Source: Thermoleophilia bacterium SCSIO 60948 (GTDB taxonomy: Bacteria > Actinomycetota > Thermoleophilia > Solirubrobacterales > 70-9). Taken from it: a DNA stretch of 64,000 bases. Below, one piece after another: positions 3,548 through 42,290 of this stretch. How positions within the stretch are numbered: the first letter of the stretch is position 1; each line of letters opens with the position of its first letter. The notes below the pieces were generated by a model. It did no database searches. It had not been told where the DNA came from and saw only the letters and a list, made by a program, of their open reading frames with translations. The stretch lies in contig CP053031.1 of the NCBI GenBank assembly GCA_021496505.1, forward strand, positions 62,001 through 126,000, written 5' to 3'. The position numbers were made by a program, and so were the translations under genes.

Positions 3548-5667
3548 GCACCACATCCGACGCACCGCCGATGTCGATCGGTACCCCGCGCGTCCGGGCG
3601 GAGGCCCGTGACAAGGTCACCGGAGCCGCGCAGTACTCCTACGAGCGTCCGCAGGACGGGATGGGCTACGGCTGGATCGTCGGGGCGACGATCGCCCGGG
3701 GCACCGTGGTCACCGTCGACACCGACCGAGCGCTGGCCGCCCCGGGCGTCGTGGCGGTCCTTACGCACGAGAACGCACCGAAGCTCCAGCCTGACGTCAA
3801 CGCCGAACTCGAGGCGTTGCAACACGCCGGCGTCCAATTCCGCGGACAGCCGATCGCCCTGGTCGTGGCTGAGACCCTCGAGGAGGCCAGGGAGGCTGCG
3901 GGCTTCGTGAGCGCCGAGTATCGAGAGGAGGCGCACGACGTCCTGTTGCGTGAGGATCATCCCGACCTCTACGTCCCTGAGGAACTGGGCGGCGGGTCCC
4001 CGCCGTCATCGGGAGTCGGCGACCCTGACGCCGCGCTGGCGGCTGCGCCGGCGACGGTGGATGTGACCTATCGCACCCCGGCCGAGCACAACAACCCGAT
4101 GGAGCCCCACGCCACGACGGCGGCGTGGGGCGCCGCCGGCGGGCTCACCCTTTACGACTCCACGCAGGATCCGTCGGGCACGCGCGACACGGTCGCGCAG
4201 CTGTTCGGGATCGACGAAGCGGACGTGCAGGTCTGCAACGAGCACGTCGGAGGTGGATTCGGGAGCAAGGGGACCACGCGGATGAACGCCGTCCTCGCGG
4301 CGCAAGCCGCCAAGGTCACCGGCCGCCCGGTCAAGCTCGCCGTCACCCGGCAGCAGATGTTCGACCTCACCGGCTACCGGACGCCGACGATCCAGCGCGT
4401 GCGTCTCGGAGCCGAGACCGACGGCCGGCTTGTGGGGATAGCGCATCACGCCCTGGGCCAGACCGCCGACATCCCCGGCTTCCTGGAGCCGACTACGACC
4501 CCGACCCGCGTGCTCTACGCCGCCGCGCACCGCCGAACCAGCCAGGAGGTCGTCGAACTCGACGTGCCGACGCCATCGTGGATGCGGGCGCCGGGCCGCT
4601 GCCCCGGCGTCTTTGCGATCGAGACCGCGATGGACGAGCTCGCAACCCAGCTGGGCATCGACCCGATCGTCCTGCGTGAGCGCAACGAGACCGCCAACGA
4701 TCCCGAGAGCGGATCGCCGTTCAGCTCGCGCGGCCTGGTGCAATGCCTGCACGAAGGGGCTCGCCGCTTCAACTGGGCCGATCGCGACCCCCGGCCCGGC
4801 GTCCGCCTACGAGATCGCAAGCTGATCGGCACGGGTGTCGCGGGCTCGACGTACCCCGCGCAACGCAACCCCGCGCAGGCCACCGCGCGCGCCCTGCCGG
4901 GCGGGACGTTCGAGGTCGCAATCAGCGCGTCGGACATCGGCACGGGCGCGAGAACCGTGCTCGGCCAGATCGCCGCGGACGCGCTCGGAGTCGAGGCGGA
5001 TCTGGTCACCGCGTACGTCGGCGACAGCGCCCTGCCCGACGGTCCGGGGGCGGGCGACTCCGCCGGCACCGCCTCATGGGGCTCGGCCGTGCACGGCGCC
5101 TGCGTTGCCCTGCGCCGCCAGCTGCAGGACCGGGGCGGTTCGACAAGCGACCCCGTCGAGGCCACCTGGGACACAACGGACGAGATCGAAGCCGAAGGCG
5201 ACTACGCGCGCCACAGCTTCGCTGCGCACTTCGCCGAGGTCGAAGTCGACGTCGATACAGGCGTGGTCTCCGTGCCACGGCTCCTCGGCGTCTTCGCCTG
5301 CGGCCGCATCCTCAACCCGCACACCGCCCAGTCGCAGTTCGTCGGGGCCCTGATCATGGGAATCGGCATGGCCCTCATGGAGGAATCGACCGTCGACCTC
5401 GCTCACGGCGACTTCCTCAACCACGACCTCGCGCAGTACCACGTGCCGGCCAACGCGGACGTCCTCGGTGTGGAAGCCGCTTGGATCGAGGAACACGACG
5501 AACACCTCAATCCGATGGGCTCCAAGGGCATCGGCGAGATCGGCATCGTCGGGAGTCCGGCCGCCATCGGCAACGCCGTCTTCCACGCCACCGGCCACCG
5601 CTTCCGCGAACTGCCACTGCGTCCCGACCGCGTCCTGGAGGCTCTCCGAAGCAGAACGTCCTCGTGA
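3544..5667 (+). CDS. paoC: Aldehyde oxidoreductase, molybdopterin-binding catalytic subunit (PaoC/YagR type)
   Basis: A 707-residue large subunit, close to the usual size of about 730. An N-terminal a/b hammerhead domain (MSIGTPRVRAEARDKVTGAA...) is followed by the molybdenum-cofactor domains: HNNPMEPHATTAAW, the Gly-rich VGGGFGSKGTT, RAPGRCPGVFAIE and the C-terminal GSKGIGEIGIVGSPAAIGNA. The last contains the family catalytic Glu (GxGE). It oxidises an aldehyde or N-heterocycle by water-derived hydroxylation; the substrate is not readable. ATG 3544 overlaps the paoB stop. No XdhC/PaoD-type maturation gene is adjacent, so cofactor insertion must use a gene elsewhere. A hairpin follows at 5676-5694. 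Confidence 0.93.
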   Translation: MSTTSDAPPMSIGTPRVRAEARDKVTGAAQYSYERPQDGMGYGWIVGATIARGTVVTVDTDRALAAPGVVAVLTHENAPKLQPDVNAELEALQHAGVQFRGQPIALVVAETLEEAREAAGFVSAEYREEAHDVLLREDHPDLYVPEELGGGSPPSSGVGDPDAALAAAPATVDVTYRTPAEHNNPMEPHATTAAWGAAGGLTLYDSTQDPSGTRDTVAQLFGIDEADVQVCNEHVGGGFGSKGTTRMNAVLAAQAAKVTGRPVKLAVTRQQMFDLTGYRTPTIQRVRLGAETDGRLVGIAHHALGQTADIPGFLEPTTTPTRVLYAAAHRRTSQEVVELDVPTPSWMRAPGRCPGVFAIETAMDELATQLGIDPIVLRERNETANDPESGSPFSSRGLVQCLHEGARRFNWADRDPRPGVRLRDRKLIGTGVAGSTYPAQRNPAQATARALPGGTFEVAISASDIGTGARTVLGQIAADALGVEADLVTAYVGDSALPDGPGAGDSAGTASWGSAVHGACVALRRQLQDRGGSTSDPVEATWDTTDEIEAEGDYARHSFAAHFAEVEVDVDTGVVSVPRLLGVFACGRILNPHTAQSQFVGALIMGIGMALMEESTVDLAHGDFLNHDLAQYHVPANADVLGVEAAWIEEHDEHLNPMGSKGIGEIGIVGSPAAIGNAVFHATGHRFRELPLRPDRVLEALRSRTSS

Positions 5668-26521: not shown

Positions 26522-26566
26522 ATCTCCCGACGCAGTATCGCGACCCGCGCCGACTAGGGTTGGACC

Positions 26567-26660
26567 CACGGGAGCCCGGCGGACGAGCGGGCTGAGAGGG
26601 CGGCTACGGGGCCGCCGACCGTCAGAACCTGATCCGGGTCATTCCGGCGCAAGGGAGAGT
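26567..26660 (+). ncRNA. TPP (THI-box) riboswitch
   Basis: The conserved THI-box cores are present in order: GGGCTGAGAGGG (26589-26600), a variable GC-rich P3 arm, then GTCAGAACCTGATCCGGGTC (26621-26640) and ATTCCGGCGCAAGGGAG. The element ends 2-8 nt before the thiO GTG (26662), so ligand binding probably hides the ribosome site (AGGGAGAG) and blocks translation. A TAGGGT hexamer at 26555-26560 is a possible -10 element. It controls thiO-thiS-thiG. Confidence 0.95.
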
Positions 26661-26661
26661 C

Positions 26662-27827
26662 GTGACACCGCAAACGCAACCTTCGAGCGAAGCGCCCGGC
26701 TCCTCGGTCGACGACGTCCTGATCGTCGGCGGCGGGGTGATCGGGCTCGCCACCGCCTGGCGGCTCGCCGGCGAGGGGCTGCGTGTGCGCGTACTCGAGG
26801 CAGAGCATCCGGGTGCCGGTGCCTCCGGGGTCGCGGCCGGGATGCTCGCGCCCGTCGGCGAGGCGAGCTGGGGCGAGGACCGGCTGCTCGCGATGGCGCT
26901 GCGCTCGCATGGGCTCTGGCCCGGTTTCGCGGCCGAGCTCGAGCGGGCGAGCGGCGGCGAGGTCGGCTTCCTGCCCTTCGGCGCGATCCACGTGGCCCTC
27001 GATGCCGACGAGGCCGCGGCGCTCCACGATCGCTTCGAGCTCATGCAGGACCACGGGCTCGTCGCGAGCTGGCTGCGGCCACGCGAGTGCCGACGGCTCG
27101 AGCCGGGGCTCACCCCGGCGCTCGCCGGGGGCGTGTCGGCTCCGCACGAGGCCGCCGTCGATCCGCGGATGCTGCTCGGAGCGCTCGAGCGGGCGGCGCG
27201 CGACTCCGGCGTGGCGGTCGAGCTCGGAGCGGCAGCCGATGAGCTCCTCCTCGAGGGCGGCCGGGTCGTCGGCGTGCGATCGGGCGCCTCCGAGCTCCGC
27301 GCGGCGACGACGGTCCTCGCGGCCGGGTCGTGGTCGGCGGCCGACTGGCTGCCCGCCGATTCAAGGCCGCCGGTGCGACCGGTCAAGGGCCAGATCCTGA
27401 CCCTGAAGGGCCCGGCGGGCGAGCCGGTCTGCGAGCGGATCGTCTGCTCCGAGCGCATCTACATGGTCCCGCGCGGCGACGGGCGGTTGATCGTCGGCGC
27501 GACCGTCGAGGAGCTCGGGTTCGATCGCCGGATAACCGCCCGCGGCGTACTCGAGCTGCTTCGCGAGGGCTACCGCGCGCTCCCCGACGTCGCCGAGCTC
27601 GAGTTGGTCGAGACGATCGCGGGGCTGCGGCCCGCGACGCCGGACAACCTCCCGCTGCTGGGCCCGGCGGCGACCGAGGGACTCGTCTTCGCCACGGGGC
27701 ACTTCCGCAACGGGATCCTCCTGGCGCCGTTCTCGGCCGCGGCGATCACCGACCTGCTCCTCGGACGCGAACCCCCGGCGGAGGCCCGCGCCGCCGACCC
27801 CGCGCGGTTCACCGTCGCGCCTGCCCG

Positions 27828-33077: not shown

Positions 33078-33737
33078 TCAGCTCGGCAGCCGGTAGCCCA
33101 TCCCGCGAACCGTCTCGACGATCCCGTCGCCGAGCTTGCGGCGCAGGTAGCGGACGTAGACCTCGACGACGTTCGAGCCGGGGTCGTAGTCGTAGCCCCA
33201 GACGTGGGCGAGGAGCTGCTCGCGCGAGAGCACCTGGCCGGGATGGCGCATCAGCGTCTCGAGCATCGTGAACTCCCGCGCCGTCAGGTCGACGAGCCGG
33301 CCGTCCTGCATCGCCTTGCGGGTGCGCAGGTCGAGCGAGATGCCGCCGGCCTCGAGCAGATTCGACTCTCCCGATCTACCGCCGCGCAGCTGCACCCGGA
33401 CGCGCGCGAGGAGCTCCTCGAGCTTGAACGGCTTCGTGATGTAGTCGTCGCCGCCGGCGTCGAGCCCGGAGACCATGTCGCCGGAGTCGTCGCGGGCGGT
33501 GAGGATGATCACCGGCAGGCCCTCGCCGCGGCGGCGCAGTTCACGCAGGACGCTGAAGCCGTCGATGTCGGGCAGACCCAGGTCGAGGATCAACAGGTCG
33601 AAGTCGGCGTCGCTCGCGATCGCCAGCGCGCTCGCGCCGTCGCTGACGACCTTGGTCGAGTACCCGCGCGAGCCCAGGCCCCGGTCGAGGAAGCTCGCCA
33701 TCCCGCGCTCGTCCTCGCAGATCAGTATCCGGTTCAT
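33078..33737 (-). CDS. Response regulator, OmpR/PhoB family
   Basis: 219 residues. Receiver domain with acidic pocket ED (8-9), phosphorylation site Asp52 in LLILDLGLPDIDGF, conserved Thr in IILTARDDSGD and Lys in ITKPFKLEELL. The winged-helix output domain ends VVEVYVRYLRRKLGDGIVETVRGMGYRLP. Its ATG overlaps the kinase stop by 4 nt, so the pair is co-translated. The regulon cannot be inferred from sequence. Confidence 0.95.
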   Translation of the reverse strand: MNRILICEDERGMASFLDRGLGSRGYSTKVVSDGASALAIASDADFDLLILDLGLPDIDGFSVLRELRRRGEGLPVIILTARDDSGDMVSGLDAGGDDYITKPFKLEELLARVRVQLRGGRSGESNLLEAGGISLDLRTRKAMQDGRLVDLTAREFTMLETLMRHPGQVLSREQLLAHVWGYDYDPGSNVVEVYVRYLRRKLGDGIVETVRGMGYRLPS

Positions 33738-35254
33738 GCTCGGCCTCCTTCGCCCCGTCGTCTGACCTCTTCCTCGTGGTCGAGCGGGATCTCGATCTCG
33801 AACCGCGCTCCGCCCTCCTCGGCCTCGCCGACGGACACCGACCCCCCGTGTGCCTCTGCGATCGCGCGGACGATCGCCAGGCCCATGCCGCTTCCCTCGT
33901 AGGTCTGGCGCCCCTTCGCCCCGCGTGCGAAGCGCTCGAAGATCCGCTCGCGCTCCGAGGCGGGGACCCCCGGCCCGGAGTCCGCGATCCAGATCCGCGC
34001 CGCCCCCGACTCGGCGGCCGAGCCGATCACGATCCGGTCACCAGGCTCGGTCTGGCGCACGGCGTTGGAGATCAGGCTCATCGCCGCCTGCGTCAGGCGC
34101 TGTGGGTCGCCGACCAGCGACGCCCGGCTGCGCGAATCGAGTCGCCAGTCGCGATCGGCGGTGGCCTTCGCCTTGGCGTGGATCTCTTCGGCGAGCGTGT
34201 CGAGCGCGACCGTCTGGAGTCGCAGGAAGTCGGGGTTCTCGCTTCGCGCGAGCAGCAGCAGGTCCTCGACGAAGCGGTTCATCCGGTCGAGCTCACCGGT
34301 CACGAGCGCCATCGACTCCCGCCGCTCGTCCTCGGTCGCCGTCCCTTCGCCGAGCAGCTCGAGGTGGCCGCTGACGACCGCGATCGGCGTCCGCAGCTCG
34401 TGCGAGACGTCGCGGGTGAACTCACGCTGCGAGCTGAACGCCGATTCGAGCCGGTCCATCATCCGGTTGAACGTCCGCGCCAGCTCGGCGATCTCGTCGG
34501 ATCCGCGGGCGTCGATCCGGTGGCGCAGATCCGACCCGGACGCGCTCCGGGCCGCCGCCGAGAGGTCGCGTAGCGGCGCGAGCACACGGCTCGAGATCGC
34601 GAACGCCAGCGCCGTTCCGATCAAAAGGATGCCGGCGGCGACGACCGCGAGGACGCCGACCGCCTCGGAGACCTCTTCCTGTTGGGGCCCGATGAACCCC
34701 GCGACGACGAACGTCCCGAGCGCTCCGTCGCGGCCACGCACGGGCGTCGCGACGTAGCGAACGACTCCCTGGTCGGAATCGAACTCGCCCTCCTCGGGCG
34801 CGTCGAGCCTGCGCCAGGCGTCGATCCGGTCGACGAACGGAGCTCCGACGCCTTCCTGGGGGCGCCCGCCTGGAGTCTGCGCGGTGACCCCGCCGCGCTC
34901 GGGGATCGCGATCACGACCTCGCTGTCACCAGGGACGTTGCGGGCGAAGTAGGCGTCGGCGATCTCGCCGATCGAGCGGTAGGGCATCCCGCTTCGGGTC
35001 TCACCGGCCACCGCCTCGAACTCCGATACCTCCTGGGCGAGCTCGCCCGCGATCCGGCTGTCGAGGCGCGCGTCGAGGATCTGGCGGACCAGTGCCACCG
35101 AGACGATCAGCGCCAGGGCGAGCAGCAGGACGTAGGAGGCGAGGATGCGGGCCCGCACGTCGCCGAGCAGGCGCTGGCGAAAGCGCCGCGGCGGCGGATC
35201 GGACTCGGCCGAGTATGCGCCCTCCCGCGCCTCCGGGTCAGTCGTCTCCGTCAT
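33734..35254 (-). CDS. Membrane sensor histidine kinase
   Basis: 506 residues from ATG 35254 (ATG 35269 and 35266 are alternatives). Two membrane helices (about 30-50 and 190-210) enclose a periplasmic sensor domain of about 140 residues, then HAMP (RVLAPLRDLSAAARS), the H-box REFTRDVSHELRTPIAV, N-box LISNAVRQT, and G-boxes IADSGPGVPASERERIFERF and GSGMGLAIVRAI. It is the partner of the response regulator downstream. Its first codons overlap the end of the acid-tailed gene upstream. Confidence 0.94.
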   Translation of the reverse strand: MTETTDPEAREGAYSAESDPPPRRFRQRLLGDVRARILASYVLLLALALIVSVALVRQILDARLDSRIAGELAQEVSEFEAVAGETRSGMPYRSIGEIADAYFARNVPGDSEVVIAIPERGGVTAQTPGGRPQEGVGAPFVDRIDAWRRLDAPEEGEFDSDQGVVRYVATPVRGRDGALGTFVVAGFIGPQQEEVSEAVGVLAVVAAGILLIGTALAFAISSRVLAPLRDLSAAARSASGSDLRHRIDARGSDEIAELARTFNRMMDRLESAFSSQREFTRDVSHELRTPIAVVSGHLELLGEGTATEDERRESMALVTGELDRMNRFVEDLLLLARSENPDFLRLQTVALDTLAEEIHAKAKATADRDWRLDSRSRASLVGDPQRLTQAAMSLISNAVRQTEPGDRIVIGSAAESGAARIWIADSGPGVPASERERIFERFARGAKGRQTYEGSGMGLAIVRAIAEAHGGSVSVGEAEEGGARFEIEIPLDHEEEVRRRGEGGRA

Positions 35255-35636
35255 CGTCGTCACCATCATCGTCGCCGCTCGGCGCCGGCGTCACCGGGCT
35301 GGGCGCGGGAGCCGGAGTAGGCGCGGTGACGGTCGTCGTCTGCGTCACCGCGGGCGGCGGCTCGATCGAGGCGAGGACCCGCCTGCGGAGCTCGCGCCGC
35401 TTCTGACGGCGCTCGACGCGGGTGCTTCGCGCCTCGGCGCGTCGCTCGGCACGCCGATCACGTCGCTCGGCACGCCGGTCGGCGCGGGCGGCTGCGATCT
35501 CCTGTGGGTCCGGAGCGGCCACCTGGATCGTCCTCAGCTCCGGCTCAGACCCCTGCGCGCCGAGCAACGGGACCACGACGGCGCCGACCGCGAGCACGGC
35601 CAGCGCGGCGACCATGGCTGTTCGAAGCGGCGACAT
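35238..35636 (-). CDS. Exported or membrane-anchored protein with Arg/Glu helix and Asp tail, upstream of the kinase
   Basis: About 132 residues from ATG 35636 (GTG 35645 is an alternative). One N-terminal hydrophobic segment (MVAALAVLAVGAVVVPLLGA) acts as signal or anchor, then a charged helix with repeated DRRAERR-type motifs (about 50-90), a Pro/Thr linker and an extremely acidic end (DDDGDDDDGDD). It overlaps the kinase start by about 17 nt, so the order is this gene, kinase, regulator. The Asp tail could bind Ca2+ or other cations, and the protein might modulate the sensor; both are inference. Confidence 0.65.
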   Translation of the reverse strand: MSPLRTAMVAALAVLAVGAVVVPLLGAQGSEPELRTIQVAAPDPQEIAAARADRRAERRDRRAERRAEARSTRVERRQKRRELRRRVLASIEPPPAVTQTTTVTAPTPAPAPSPVTPAPSGDDDGDDDDGDD

Positions 35637-35776
35637 CACGAGCACCGTCGCGCGCGCCGATGAGGCTCGGATTGGGCTCGGATTAGAGATTTCTCATAAC
35701 CCGCCTCAAGGGACCGTTACGCGGCATCGCGGCGAAGCGGAGTCGATGCCTCCGGAGCGCTAATCTCGGCCCGGGG

Positions 35777-37447
35777 ATGGGAGAGCTGATCATCGGACCG
35801 CTGCTTCGCTACGTCGCCGAGACGGAGGCGACGGTGTGGGTCGAGACCGACACCCCGGGGACCGTCTCGGTCCTGGGCCGCGAGGCCAGGACGTTCACGG
35901 TCGGCGGCCACCACTACGCGCTCGTCTCTCTCGACGGCCTCGAGTGCGGTAGCCGCAACCCCTACACGGTCGAACTCGACGGCGAGCAGGTCTGGCCGCC
36001 CCCCGACTATCGGTTCCCGCAGCCCGAGATCAGGACGATCGACGCCGATCAGCAGCTCCGGGTCCTCTACGGCTCGTGCCGTGTCGCCGCCCCGCACGAG
36101 CCGCCCTACAACCTCCCGAAGGATCGTGACTCGCGCGGTCGTGAGTACGACGCGCTCTACGCCAAGGCGCTCCACATGCTCGGCGACGACTCGACCGACG
36201 AGGTCGACGACGAGCAATGGCCGCACGTGATGCTGCTGCTCGGCGATCAGATCTATGCCGACGAGGTCTCTCCCGGGACGGCCGAGGTGATCGCGAAGCG
36301 CCGCGACACCGACACCGGGCCCGGCGAGCAGGTCGCCGACTTCGAGGAGTACACGGCGCTCTACCGCGAGTCGTGGACCGACCCGGTGATCCGCTGGCTG
36401 CTCTCGACGGTGTCGAGCTCGATGATCTGGGACGACCACGACATGCACGACGACTGGAACATCTCCGAGTCGTGGGTCGAGGACATGCGAGGGCTCGACT
36501 GGTGGGAGGACCGGATCCTCGGCGGGATCGTCTCCTACTGGATCCATCAGCACATCGGCAACCTCTCGCCGGGCGAGCTCGCCGCGAACGAGCAGTGGCG
36601 GCAGGTGCAGGAGCTCGATGACGCGAGCGACTACCTACGCGAGTTCGCCGGTCGCGCCGACCACCACGAGGACGGCTCGCACTGGAGCATCTACCGCGAC
36701 GTCGGCTCGAGGCGGATCGTCCTGATCGACTCGCGTGGGGGGCGCTGCCTCGATCCGGGCGATCGCCACATGGTCGACGCCAAGCAGTGGGAATGGATCG
36801 TGGACAAGTTCTCCGGCGACTTCGATCACCTGATCGTCGGGACGTCCTGTCCGTGGTTGCTGGCGACGGGCATCCACCACGCCGAGGCCTGGAACGAGGC
36901 GCTCTGCGACGGGGCCTGGGGGTCGACGGTGGCCCGCTGGAGCGAGAAGATCCGTCGCGCCGGCGACTTCGACCACTGGGCGGGATTCCGGCGGTCCTTC
37001 GAGGACCTCGGTGAGCTGATCGCGGAGAAGGGGTCGGGGCGACTCGGGCGCGCGCCTGAGTCGATCACGGTCCTCGCGGGCGACGTCCATCACGCCTATC
37101 TGAACGAGGTCGGGTTCCGTCCGGGCTCCTCGGTGACGAGCGCGGTCCACCAGGCGGTCTGCTCGCCGTTTCGCAACCCGCTCAACCGCCGCGAGCGAGT
37201 GCTGATCCGCGCGACCCGGACGCGCCCCTTCATCAGCCTCTTCCGCGGCCTCGCCCGGCGCGCGGGGGTGCCCGATCCAGCGTTCGGATGGCGACTCGGC
37301 GAGGGTCCGTTCTTCGACAATCAGGTCGGGACGCTCTGGATCGATGACGACGGCGTCATCGCTCGCCTCGAGAAGACCGTTCCCGACCGCGCGATGCAGG
37401 GTCTGAAGCCCGAGCTCGAGCTCTCCTACGAGCGTCGCCTGGTCTGA
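35777..37447 (+). CDS. PhoD-like phosphatase / alkaline phosphatase D family
   Basis: 556 residues, no signal peptide. An N-terminal beta domain (GPLLRYVAETEATVWVETD...) precedes a metallophosphatase domain with the metal-site motifs VLYGSCRVA, LLLGDQIYADE, MIWDDHDMHDDWN, and the C-terminal TVLAGDVHHAYL. These match PhoD/calcineurin-like enzymes that hydrolyse phosphodi- or monoesters with Ca/Fe. Unlike secreted PhoD it lacks a Tat signal, so it may act in the cytoplasm. It stands alone; the next gene is a small Arg-rich protein. Confidence 0.88.
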   Translation: MGELIIGPLLRYVAETEATVWVETDTPGTVSVLGREARTFTVGGHHYALVSLDGLECGSRNPYTVELDGEQVWPPPDYRFPQPEIRTIDADQQLRVLYGSCRVAAPHEPPYNLPKDRDSRGREYDALYAKALHMLGDDSTDEVDDEQWPHVMLLLGDQIYADEVSPGTAEVIAKRRDTDTGPGEQVADFEEYTALYRESWTDPVIRWLLSTVSSSMIWDDHDMHDDWNISESWVEDMRGLDWWEDRILGGIVSYWIHQHIGNLSPGELAANEQWRQVQELDDASDYLREFAGRADHHEDGSHWSIYRDVGSRRIVLIDSRGGRCLDPGDRHMVDAKQWEWIVDKFSGDFDHLIVGTSCPWLLATGIHHAEAWNEALCDGAWGSTVARWSEKIRRAGDFDHWAGFRRSFEDLGELIAEKGSGRLGRAPESITVLAGDVHHAYLNEVGFRPGSSVTSAVHQAVCSPFRNPLNRRERVLIRATRTRPFISLFRGLARRAGVPDPAFGWRLGEGPFFDNQVGTLWIDDDGVIARLEKTVPDRAMQGLKPELELSYERRLV

Positions 37448-37478: not shown

Positions 37479-37506
37479 GTTGGAAGCTTCTAATCGCGGT
37501 CCAATC
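37479..37506 (+). promoter_or_regulatory. Leader dyad of arginine-rich microprotein 1
   Basis: GTTGGA and TCCAAT flank AGCTTCTAATCGCGG and end 91 nt before ATG 37597. The same arrangement with closely similar sequence precedes the second microprotein at 37764-37800. Shared elements (TTGGAA, TCTNATCG, TCCAATC, later CAGGCTG and CGGGCTC) show the leaders are paralogous. Confidence 0.6.
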
Positions 37507-37596
37507 CCCGTTCAAGCCGTGGGTCCCAGGCTGCCTCTCATCAAGTCAACCGGCGTGCTCGCGGATCGGGCTCGTCAGACGCAGGAGGCAGTCGAA

Positions 37597-37737
37597 ATGG
37601 GATTCAGCGCCCTCTACCCCGCAGGCCAGTCGCTCTCGAAGCGCGGCTCGAACTCGAACTCGGGCTCGAAGTCGAAGCGCTCGCGGCGCCGGCGCCGGCG
37701 TCGTCGCAACCGGTCGCGTCGCTCGCGGAGCAACTGA
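37597..37737 (+). CDS. Arginine-rich microprotein 1 (46 aa)
   Basis: Starts MGFSALYPAGQSLSKRG, has a Ser/Asn/Lys linker and ends in a nearly pure Arg tract with RSRSN at the C-terminus. ATG 37597 has a strong GGAGG ribosome site at 37584-37588, 8 nt away. The conserved N-terminal MGFSALYPA shared with the gene at 37890, followed by a variable linker and Arg-rich tail, argues for a real duplicated gene. The tail could bind nucleic acid (ribosome, RNA or DNA). No family recognised. Confidence 0.75.
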   Translation: MGFSALYPAGQSLSKRGSNSNSGSKSKRSRRRRRRRRNRSRRSRSN

Positions 37738-37763
37738 CCCGTACCGGCCGCGGGGCGCCGAGG

Positions 37764-37800
37764 GGACGATTGGAAATCTCTCATCGGGTTCCAATCGTCC
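37764..37800 (+). promoter_or_regulatory. 12-bp perfect inverted repeat in the leader of arginine-rich microprotein 2
   Basis: GGACGATTGGAA (37764-37775) and TTCCAATCGTCC (37789-37800) are exact complements around the 13-nt ATCTCTCATCGGG. It lies 26 nt after microprotein 1 and 90 nt before ATG 37890. It may be a structured leader, an operator, or a terminator for the first gene. Because a related dyad precedes the first gene at the same distance, a regulatory leader is favoured. Downstream, CCAAGGAGTAAG occurs twice (about 37826 and 37876); the second copy is the ribosome site. Confidence 0.7.
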
Positions 37801-37889
37801 GCCAATCGGCGCCCCTCAGGCTGGCCCAAGGAGTAAGGCAAACGGCGTTCCCCCAGCCACCGGGCTCTCGCCAGACCAAGGAGTAAGAC

Positions 37890-38027
37890 ATGGGCTTCAG
37901 CGCTCTCTATCCGGCCAGCCGCAAGGCGGGCCGCAACACCAACACCGGCGACAACGACCGCAGCTCGCGCCGCCGCCGCCGCCGTCGCCGCCGCCGGAAT
38001 CGCCGCTCGCGCAGCCGGACCAACTAG
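37890..38027 (+). CDS. Arginine-rich microprotein 2 (45 aa)
   Basis: Paralogue of the gene at 37597: MGFSALYPASRKAGRNTNTG, then DNDRSS, about ten consecutive Arg, and a Ser/Arg tail ending RSRTN. ATG 37890 has AAGGAG at 37878-37883. The N-terminal nine residues are identical to the first copy. A very GC-rich 13-bp hairpin (38058-38085) follows and probably terminates the transcript. Confidence 0.75.
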   Translation: MGFSALYPASRKAGRNTNTGDNDRSSRRRRRRRRRRNRRSRSRTN

Positions 38028-38057
38028 AGCCCGGTGACGAGGACCACGAACGAGAAC

Positions 38058-38085
38058 CGCGGCCCCGCCCAGGCGGGGCCGCGGG
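38058..38085 (+). terminator. Strong GC hairpin after the microprotein genes
   Basis: CCGCGGCCCCGCC pairs with GGCGGGGCCGCGG (13 bp, 2-nt spacer). It starts 31 nt after the stop of microprotein 2 and ends 5 nt before ATG 38091 of the ABC exporter. It is probably a terminator, and it argues against GTG 38034 as the exporter start because the stem would then be coding. Confidence 0.65.
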
Positions 38086-38090
38086 CGTTC

Positions 38091-39838
38091 ATGAGGCGGT
38101 TTCTGAGCCCGGCGGAGTACGCCGACTCGCAGGTCGCCGAGACGCCCGAGGTCGGCCTCCGCGACGTGCTGCGCCGTTTCTGGCCCGACGCTCGCCCGTT
38201 CCGGCGCTGGATCCCGGTGCTGCTCGGCCTCGTCGCGCTCGGTGCGGCGATCGCGACGGCCGAGATCTGGCTGTTCAAGCTCGTCGTCGACGAGGTGCTC
38301 GTCCCCGGTGAGCTCGGTCCTCTCGCCTGGATCGCCGCCGCCTATATCGGACTGACGCTGCTCGGCGGCGCCGTCTCCTTCGCCGACGATCTGCTCTCGA
38401 CGAATCTCGCCGAGCGCTTCCTGCTCGGCCTGCGTGCCCGGGTCTTCTCGCACGTCCAGGGTCTGTCGATCGACGTCTTCGATCGTCACCGCAGCGGCGA
38501 TCTGATCTCGCGCGTGACCGGCGACGTGAACGAGATCGAGGGCCTCCTGCTCTCCGGGATAACCGACGGCCTCGCCGCGGTCCTCAAGATCATCTTCTTC
38601 TCGGCCGCCCTCCTGATCCTCGACTGGCAGCTCGCGCTGATCGCGCTCGTGGTCGGGCCCTGCTTCCTCTTTCTGGCCAAGCGCTTCTCGAAGCTGATCA
38701 AGCACGCGTCGCGCGAGAAGCGCCGCCGCGCCGGCTCGCTGTCGGCGATCGCGCAGGAGAACTTCGCCAACGCCGCTCTGATCCAGTCGGCCAACGGCCA
38801 GAAGGTCGCGCTCGAGCGCTTCCGGCGCCAGAACGAGGCGGTGATCGACGCCGAGCTCGCATCGACCCGGATCCGCGGAGTCTTCGCGCCGCTCGTCGAC
38901 ATGCTCGAGCTCCTCGCCGTCCTCGCAGTCTTCGCGCTCGGGACCCTGGCGGTCGTCAACGGCTCGCTCACCGTCGGTGGGCTGCTCGTGTTCGTCGCCT
39001 ACCTCAGCCAGTTGCTCGATCCGATCCGCGAACTCGGATCGATCTCGAACCATTGGTTCAAGGCGCTGGCGGGGGCGGAGCGCGTGATCGAACTGCTCGA
39101 CACCGAGCCGCGCGTGACCGACTCGCCCGACGCGCTGCCGCTCCGCGTCAAGCGTGGGCGGATCGAGCTCGACCGCGTCGACTTCGCCTATCCGGGCCGC
39201 GACGAGCGAGCGCTCCACGACGTGAGCCTCGTGATCGAGCCCGGCGAGACCGTTGCGCTGACCGGTCCGAGCGGCGCCGGCAAGACGACGATCGCGCGAC
39301 TCGCGCTCCGCTTCTACGATCCCGGGCGAGGAGCCGTGCGCATCGACGATCAGGACCTTCGCGGCGTGACGCTCGAGTCGCTGCGTCGCGAGGTTTCGCT
39401 GCTCCTCCAGGAGGCGCCGCTTCTGAACGCGCCGGTCGCGGAGAACATCGCGCTCGCGGTTCCCGGCGCCTCGGCGCAGGAGATCGAGCGCGTCGCTCGC
39501 ATAGCCGGCGCTCACGACTTCATCGCCGCGCTTCCCGACGGCTACGCCACCGTCCTGGGCGAGCGCGGCGGCACGCTCTCCGGCGGTCAGCGCCAGCGGG
39601 TCGCGGTCGCGCGGGCCCTGCTCGCCGACGCTCCGATCCTGATCCTCGACGAGCCCACGACGGGGCTCGATGCGGCTTCGCGCCGGGCGCTGATCGGACC
39701 GCTTCGCGAGTTGATGCGCGACCGGACGACCCTGATCGTCTCCCATGACACCGAGGTGATCGCCTCGGCCGACCGGGTGGTCGAGATCGCTCCGGGCGGT
39801 AGTCGGGGAGGACCGGAGCCGGTGCTCGCGAGGGTCGC

Positions 39839-39842
<4 letters not shown>
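38091..39842 (+). CDS. ABC exporter, fused membrane and ATPase domains
   Basis: 583 residues from ATG 38091. Six membrane helices (about 35-310) form the type IV exporter domain, followed by the nucleotide-binding domain: Walker A LTGPSGAGKTTIARLAL, Q-loop LLLQEAPLLN, signature [16 protein letters not shown], Walker B ILILDEPTTGLD, H-loop VSHDTEVI. It acts as a homodimer or with another half. Substrate unknown. Its stop overlaps the kinase GTG (GTGA at 39839-39842), so the two genes are translationally coupled. Confidence 0.92.

Positions 39843-42290
<2,448 letters not shown>

What the first reader, a model, noticed from the sequence alone, without database searches (positions are those of the whole stretch)
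37597..38027. Tandem pair of arginine-rich microproteins with a shared MGFSALYPA start
Two genes of 46 and 45 codons encode identical first nine residues, then a polar linker, then about ten Arg and an Arg/Ser tail. Both have good ribosome sites. An ordered, conserved N-terminus on a polycationic tail is unlike random ORFs. Possible roles include ribosome or RNA binding, nucleoid compaction, or stress protection. I know no named family.
Basis: seen in the sequence. Interest (0 to 1): 0.75.

Follow-up and report, generated by a model that had tools for sequence, protein, structure and literature searches.

The report
Sensor-controlled arginine-rich microproteins beside an exporter
The two tiny arginine-rich genes are real members of an undescribed, widely spread microprotein family that sits next to a membrane exporter, a protein kinase and a stress-sensing system, probably as the cargo or partner of that exporter.

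Summary
In detail: two ORFs of 46 and 45 codons, identical first nine residues, good ribosome sites. They are not orphans. A profile finds the family (M-x-F-x(4)-P-A, N/S/T linker, 8-14 Arg/Lys, N/S/T end) in 13 of 232 genomes of the order (one weak hit) and 7 of 39 genomes of a family in another class. In about 20 module loci it lies directly upstream of one exporter-kinase gene pair (MsbA-like ABC, Ser/Thr kinase-like), usually with a two-component system and a membrane-anchored protein ending in poly-Asp. The two microprotein promoters and the two-component operon promoter carry the same 11-bp-period triple direct repeat; these are the three best such sites in the 64-kb window.

Best reading: a response regulator switches on a polycationic microprotein that is handled, most likely exported, by the neighbouring ABC transporter, with the poly-Asp protein as its outside partner. 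Gene set, box and conservation are shown; regulation, export and binding are inferred. A poly-Arg leader-peptide attenuator is less likely: one genus has no room for a terminator, Lys replaces Arg, both ends are conserved, and tandem copies arose separately in two lineages. No matching Pfam, NCBIfam, PADLOC or PDB family was found.

The parts
37597..37737 (+). microprotein gene 1 (46 aa)
37890..38027 (+). microprotein gene 2 (45 aa), the copy next to the ABC gene
37489..37521 (+). triple 11-bp direct repeat TCTAATCGCGG-TCCAATCCCCG-TTCAAGCCGTG, proposed response-regulator box of gene 1; CAGGCT at 37527-37532 as -10-like element (inferred)
37779..37811 (+). triple 11-bp direct repeat TCTCATCGGGT-TCCAATCGTCC-GCCAATCGGCG, box of gene 2; CAGGCT at 37817-37822 (inferred -10)
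35655..35687 (-). the same kind of box (TCTAATCCGAG-CCCAATCCGAG-CCTCATCGGCG) upstream of the two-component operon
38057..38084 (+). 12-bp perfect hairpin (-30.5 kcal/mol) between gene 2 and the ABC gene, possible partial terminator
38091..39842 (+). MsbA-like ABC exporter (membrane plus ATPase domains; no C39 peptidase); the ORF extends to a GTG at 38034 but the start is more likely ATG 38091
39839..40714 (+). Ser/Thr kinase-like protein, overlapping the ABC stop by 4 nt; catalytic Lys, HLD(V/L)KPxN and Asp kept, glycine-rich loop replaced by HLxRSxxxDVY/F
35238..35645 (-). membrane-anchored (N-in, C-out predicted) protein with Arg/Glu-rich middle and poly-Asp tail, first gene of the two-component operon
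33734..35269 (-). sensor histidine kinase (HAMP, HisKA, HATPase)
33078..33737 (-). OmpR/PhoB-type response regulator

Best explanation
The two ORFs are duplicated members of a family of polycationic microproteins belonging to a six-gene module: microprotein, ABC exporter, kinase, histidine kinase, response regulator and poly-Asp membrane-anchored protein. The histidine kinase, by an unknown signal, phosphorylates the response regulator; this binds the 11-bp-period repeats and activates both the microprotein(s) and its own operon. The microprotein (conserved N-terminal tag M-x-F-x(4)-P-A, disordered linker, poly-Arg block) is the substrate or partner of the adjacent ABC transporter and is probably exported; the kinase gates the exporter or phosphorylates the Ser/Thr-rich parts of the peptide; outside, the poly-Asp tail binds the poly-Arg block, as immunity, anchor or feedback to the sensor. 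Shown: ORFs, family, co-location, shared box, hairpin. Inferred: regulator binding, export, phosphorylation, poly-Asp binding.
For: Family conserved in two classes. In the order, microprotein and kinase occur in the same genomes (Fisher p about 8e-13). Arg-rich microORF upstream of every module ABC gene whose upstream region could be read (about 20 loci, one divergent variant L100). Box: lag-11 self-similarity 78 versus 6.9 +/- 4.5 in shuffles at microprotein promoters and 44 versus 3.7 at two-component promoters; the top three triple sites of the window are the two microprotein and the two-component promoters. Poly-Asp membrane proteins in the two-component operon or directly after the kinase gene (L122; lipoproteins in L124, L139). 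The ABC membrane part has conserved acidic residues in TM2 (D118) and TM5 (E292), neutral in MsbA and two paralogues.
Against: No expression, secretion or binding data. The closest solved ABCs are lipid and drug exporters, so the cargo may be something else. Two extra copies with the box stand alone, one near a TerC-like gene and one convergent with a CorA-like gene, so ABC linkage is not absolute. No double-glycine leader and no peptidase domain. The acidic-residue argument rests on few comparison sequences. The window's own genus relative G001 (54% complete) lacks the microproteins, ABC and kinase at this locus.
Confidence: 0.42

Rival explanations
1. Cytoplasmic regulator: the microprotein binds the cytoplasmic side of its sensor kinase, the Ser/Thr kinase or the ABC ATPase and tunes it, as small Arg-rich DUF1127 proteins bind the sensor kinase PhoR.
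For: Permanent linkage to a histidine kinase, a Ser/Thr kinase and an ABC ATPase; precedent PMC12501420; stand-alone copies exist.
Against: Not DUF1127 by Pfam. The poly-Asp partner is predicted to lie outside the membrane.
Confidence: 0.18
2. Leader-peptide attenuator: translation of the poly-Arg ORF controls read-through at the hairpin into the ABC-kinase genes.
For: Run of Arg codons followed by a strong hairpin (-24 to -38 kcal/mol) before the ABC gene in 11 of the 14 loci tested that adjoin an ABC gene, with a T run in L124 and L127.
Against: In three loci of one genus the ABC starts about 10 nt after the stop with no such hairpin. Arg codons mix CGC, CGT and CGG, and Lys replaces Arg. 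N-terminus and the N/S/T end after the Arg block are conserved. Tandem copies in two lineages; the first copy in the window has no strong hairpin of its own.
Confidence: 0.15
3. Intracellular polycation that binds RNA, ribosome, DNA or polyphosphate under stress; the ABC and kinase are merely co-regulated.
For: Composition; box-controlled stand-alone copies.
Against: Does not explain the conserved adjacency to one ABC-kinase pair in two classes; no similarity to ribosomal or nucleoid proteins in Pfam, NCBIfam or PDB.
Confidence: 0.15

Closest known systems
Peptide pheromone/bacteriocin systems with two-component control (ComCDE-ComAB, blp, pln; from own knowledge)
   Same: Small peptide gene, ABC exporter, histidine kinase and response regulator in one module; regulator-type direct repeats before the peptide gene and before the regulator operon.
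   Different: No double-glycine leader, no C39 peptidase; OmpR-type regulator and HAMP/HisKA kinase; added Ser/Thr kinase and poly-Asp membrane protein; poly-Arg peptide.
Small DUF1127 proteins (YjiS and rhizobial paralogues; PMC12501420)
   Same: Arginine-rich, often under 50 aa, tied to a two-component system.
   Different: No DUF1127 match; different architecture; conserved ABC-kinase linkage.
Protamines
   Same: Arg blocks with Ser/Thr.
   Different: Only one of 11 members gives a weak Pfam hit (E 0.092); bacterial, with conserved N-terminal tag.
MsbA/Sav1866/BmrA-type ABC exporters
   Same: The adjacent ABC belongs to this structural class.
   Different: Extra conserved acidic residues in TM2 and TM5; coupled to a kinase and a microprotein.

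Membership tests
DUF1127 small proteins | Match to the Pfam model | tested here: not met
Protamine | Match to Pfam Protamine_P1 above its gathering score | tested here: not met
   one of 11 members at E 0.092
Double-glycine peptide with peptidase-containing ABC exporter | GG cleavage motif in a leader peptide | tested here: not met
   no conserved GG in the alignment
Double-glycine peptide with peptidase-containing ABC exporter | N-terminal C39 peptidase on the ABC protein | tested here: not met
   only membrane and ATPase domains (and their relatives)
OmpR-type two-component regulon | 11-bp-period direct repeats at target and own promoters | tested here: met
OmpR-type two-component regulon | Regulator binds the repeats | not testable with these tools
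   needs a DNA-binding experiment
Leader-peptide attenuator | Terminator between leader ORF and regulated gene in all members | tested here: not met
   absent in L101, L102, L121
Leader-peptide attenuator | Run of regulatory codons | tested here: inconclusive
   Arg runs present, but codons vary and Lys replaces Arg
Active Ser/Thr protein kinase (neighbour gene) | Catalytic Lys, HxDxKxxN and metal-binding Asp | tested here: met
Active Ser/Thr protein kinase (neighbour gene) | Glycine-rich loop | tested here: not met
   HLxRSxxxDVY/F instead

The most novel reading that the evidence does not exclude
An electrostatic signalling or antimicrobial circuit: a poly-Arg peptide is exported by its own ABC transporter, caught outside by a membrane-anchored poly-Asp receptor, and the free/bound state feeds the histidine kinase that controls peptide and receptor, with the Ser/Thr kinase adjusting peptide charge before export.
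Probability: 0.2. Interest if true: 0.85.

Novelty: new variant of a known kind. Interest (0 to 1): 0.62.

Why it matters
It puts an unnamed microprotein family, missed by the annotation libraries searched, into a defined six-gene context found in two classes of one phylum. Member genomes include one that appears to be Rubrobacter xylanophilus, a cultivated species, so regulation, export and poly-Arg/poly-Asp binding could be tested directly. If the peptide is exported, this would be a peptide export system without the usual leader or peptidase.

Tried and rejected
Exact MGFSALYPA DNA pattern in relatives and class: only this genome, because the conserved core is M-x-F-x(4)-P-A. The relaxed pattern gave G014 plus chance hits inside longer proteins; scans of genome contigs and viral contigs gave one true hit, the same contig as G014, plus unrelated taxa. 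ABC-kinase gene fusion: suspected from long open frames, rejected. Longer TTG start of ORF 1 at 37480: rejected, conservation begins at ATG 37597. The 762-aa minus-strand ORF 37614-39902 is taken as a G+C artefact. G374 hit (E 6e-4) rejected, no matching context. The sixth box-like site at 2020(-) is treated as chance. Literature searches found no description of the family or module.

Full report
Observation. Both ORFs exist as described, with good ribosome sites. The shared nine codons differ by five synonymous and no amino-acid changes. Similarity continues upstream: the two are copies of one promoter-leader-ORF unit.

Relatives. The exact motif is found only in this genome. Following the neighbouring histidine kinase to genome G014, the same contig as Solirubrobacterales MAG Dino_bin17 (25,025 bases), revealed MAFQAIYPARRTSSKRSRSGGGRSRSRRRGGRGRGRSRSRNRSRS directly before the same ABC and kinase genes. 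Following the kinase through the order gave ten further loci, each with an Arg-rich microORF with a ribosome site before the ABC gene. These include a second module in the window's own genome, about 1.69 Mb away (MFKALKPASRGGRGGRTRTRTRGRTRTRTRGRTRTRTRG, L099), and one odd variant with an Arg run followed by an acidic part (L100). A profile of 11 members finds 13 of 232 genomes in the order, one of them a weak hit judged false. Ten of these genomes had supplied the rows of the profile; G255 and G386 are independent finds. In the phylum the profile finds four more genomes, all of one family in another class; with a 16-row profile that family has 7 of 39 genomes, again mostly beside the same ABC, kinase and two-component genes.

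Anatomy of the family. About 36-50 residues: M-x(0-3)-F-x(4)-[PA]-A, a linker rich in Asn, Ser, Thr, 8-14 Arg with some Lys, and an Asn/Ser/Thr end. AlphaFold2 gives no fold (mean pLDDT 64; first ten residues 77). No match in Pfam, NCBIfam, PADLOC or PDB beyond one weak protamine hit.

Module. The gene after the microprotein is an MsbA-like ABC exporter without peptidase domain, followed by a kinase-like gene with intact catalytic residues but the loop HLxRSxxxDVY/F in place of the glycine-rich loop. They are separate genes. A histidine kinase and an OmpR-type regulator lie divergent or nearby. A protein with an N-terminal membrane anchor and a poly-Asp tail is the first gene of the two-component operon in the window, L048, L093, L094, L097 and L098, or follows the kinase gene (L122, and lipoproteins in L124 and L139). 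The lipobox forms and the positive N-terminus indicate an outside location.

Control. Upstream regions of 12 microprotein genes show self-similarity at a lag of 11 bp (78 against 6.9 +/- 4.5 in shuffles, none of 500 reaching it) and, more weakly, at 22 bp; no other lag comes near the 11-bp value. Six two-component promoters show the same (44 against 3.7). The motif is TCTCA(C/T/G) in most genomes and TCTAATC/TCCAATC in the window, changed at both promoter types. In the whole window the three best triple sites are the two microprotein promoters and the two-component promoter. This predicts that the response regulator controls both; binding is not shown.

Mechanism. The conserved link to one exporter, in two classes, makes cargo or partner of the ABC the most economical reading. 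Supporting but weak: conserved acidic residues in TM2 and TM5 of the module ABCs, neutral in MsbA and in two paralogues, and the oppositely charged outside protein. The hairpin between microprotein and ABC genes would give more peptide than exporter, as in many peptide operons (own knowledge), but also fits an attenuator. Against the attenuator: three loci without it, Lys for Arg, conserved ends, and tandem copies in the window and in G504 (L133), where both copies precede the ABC gene. Stand-alone copies with the box (L132, L135) show that the peptide can be wanted without an adjacent ABC gene, which keeps cytoplasmic roles open; the DUF1127-PhoR precedent (PMC12501420) is the best model for these.

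Absence nearby. In the only other genome of the genus examined (54% complete) the phoD and purH genes that flank this region are adjacent, so microproteins, ABC and kinase are missing there.

Limits.

Noticed in passing
outside the window: G000:C1:1792573-1792692 (L099:4574): A second Arg-rich microprotein with TRTRTRG repeats before a second ABC-kinase pair in the same genome, with no clear 11-bp box.
   Followed up: partly
G000:C1:1411950-1413374 (L051) and G014:C110 (L050): Paralogous two-component systems with a TCTCAT repeat upstream in L051 and a secreted LPFTG-type protein encoded on the opposite strand in both.
   Followed up: partly
L100 (G416), about 4385-4622 (-): Variant microprotein: start, 18 Arg, then an acidic tail in the same chain, at the usual place before the ABC gene.
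   Followed up: no
L132 (G791) and L135/L137 (G633): Stand-alone microprotein copies, one upstream of a TerC-like gene, one convergent with a CorA-like gene and near a small protein with an acidic tail.
   Followed up: partly
26558-26673 (+): TPP riboswitch (Rfam RF00059, 61.7 bits).
   Followed up: no
35777-37447 (+): PhoD-like phosphatase with DUF7800 domain; in the sister genome G001 it is directly followed by purH, so the island here was gained or lost within the genus.
   Followed up: partly
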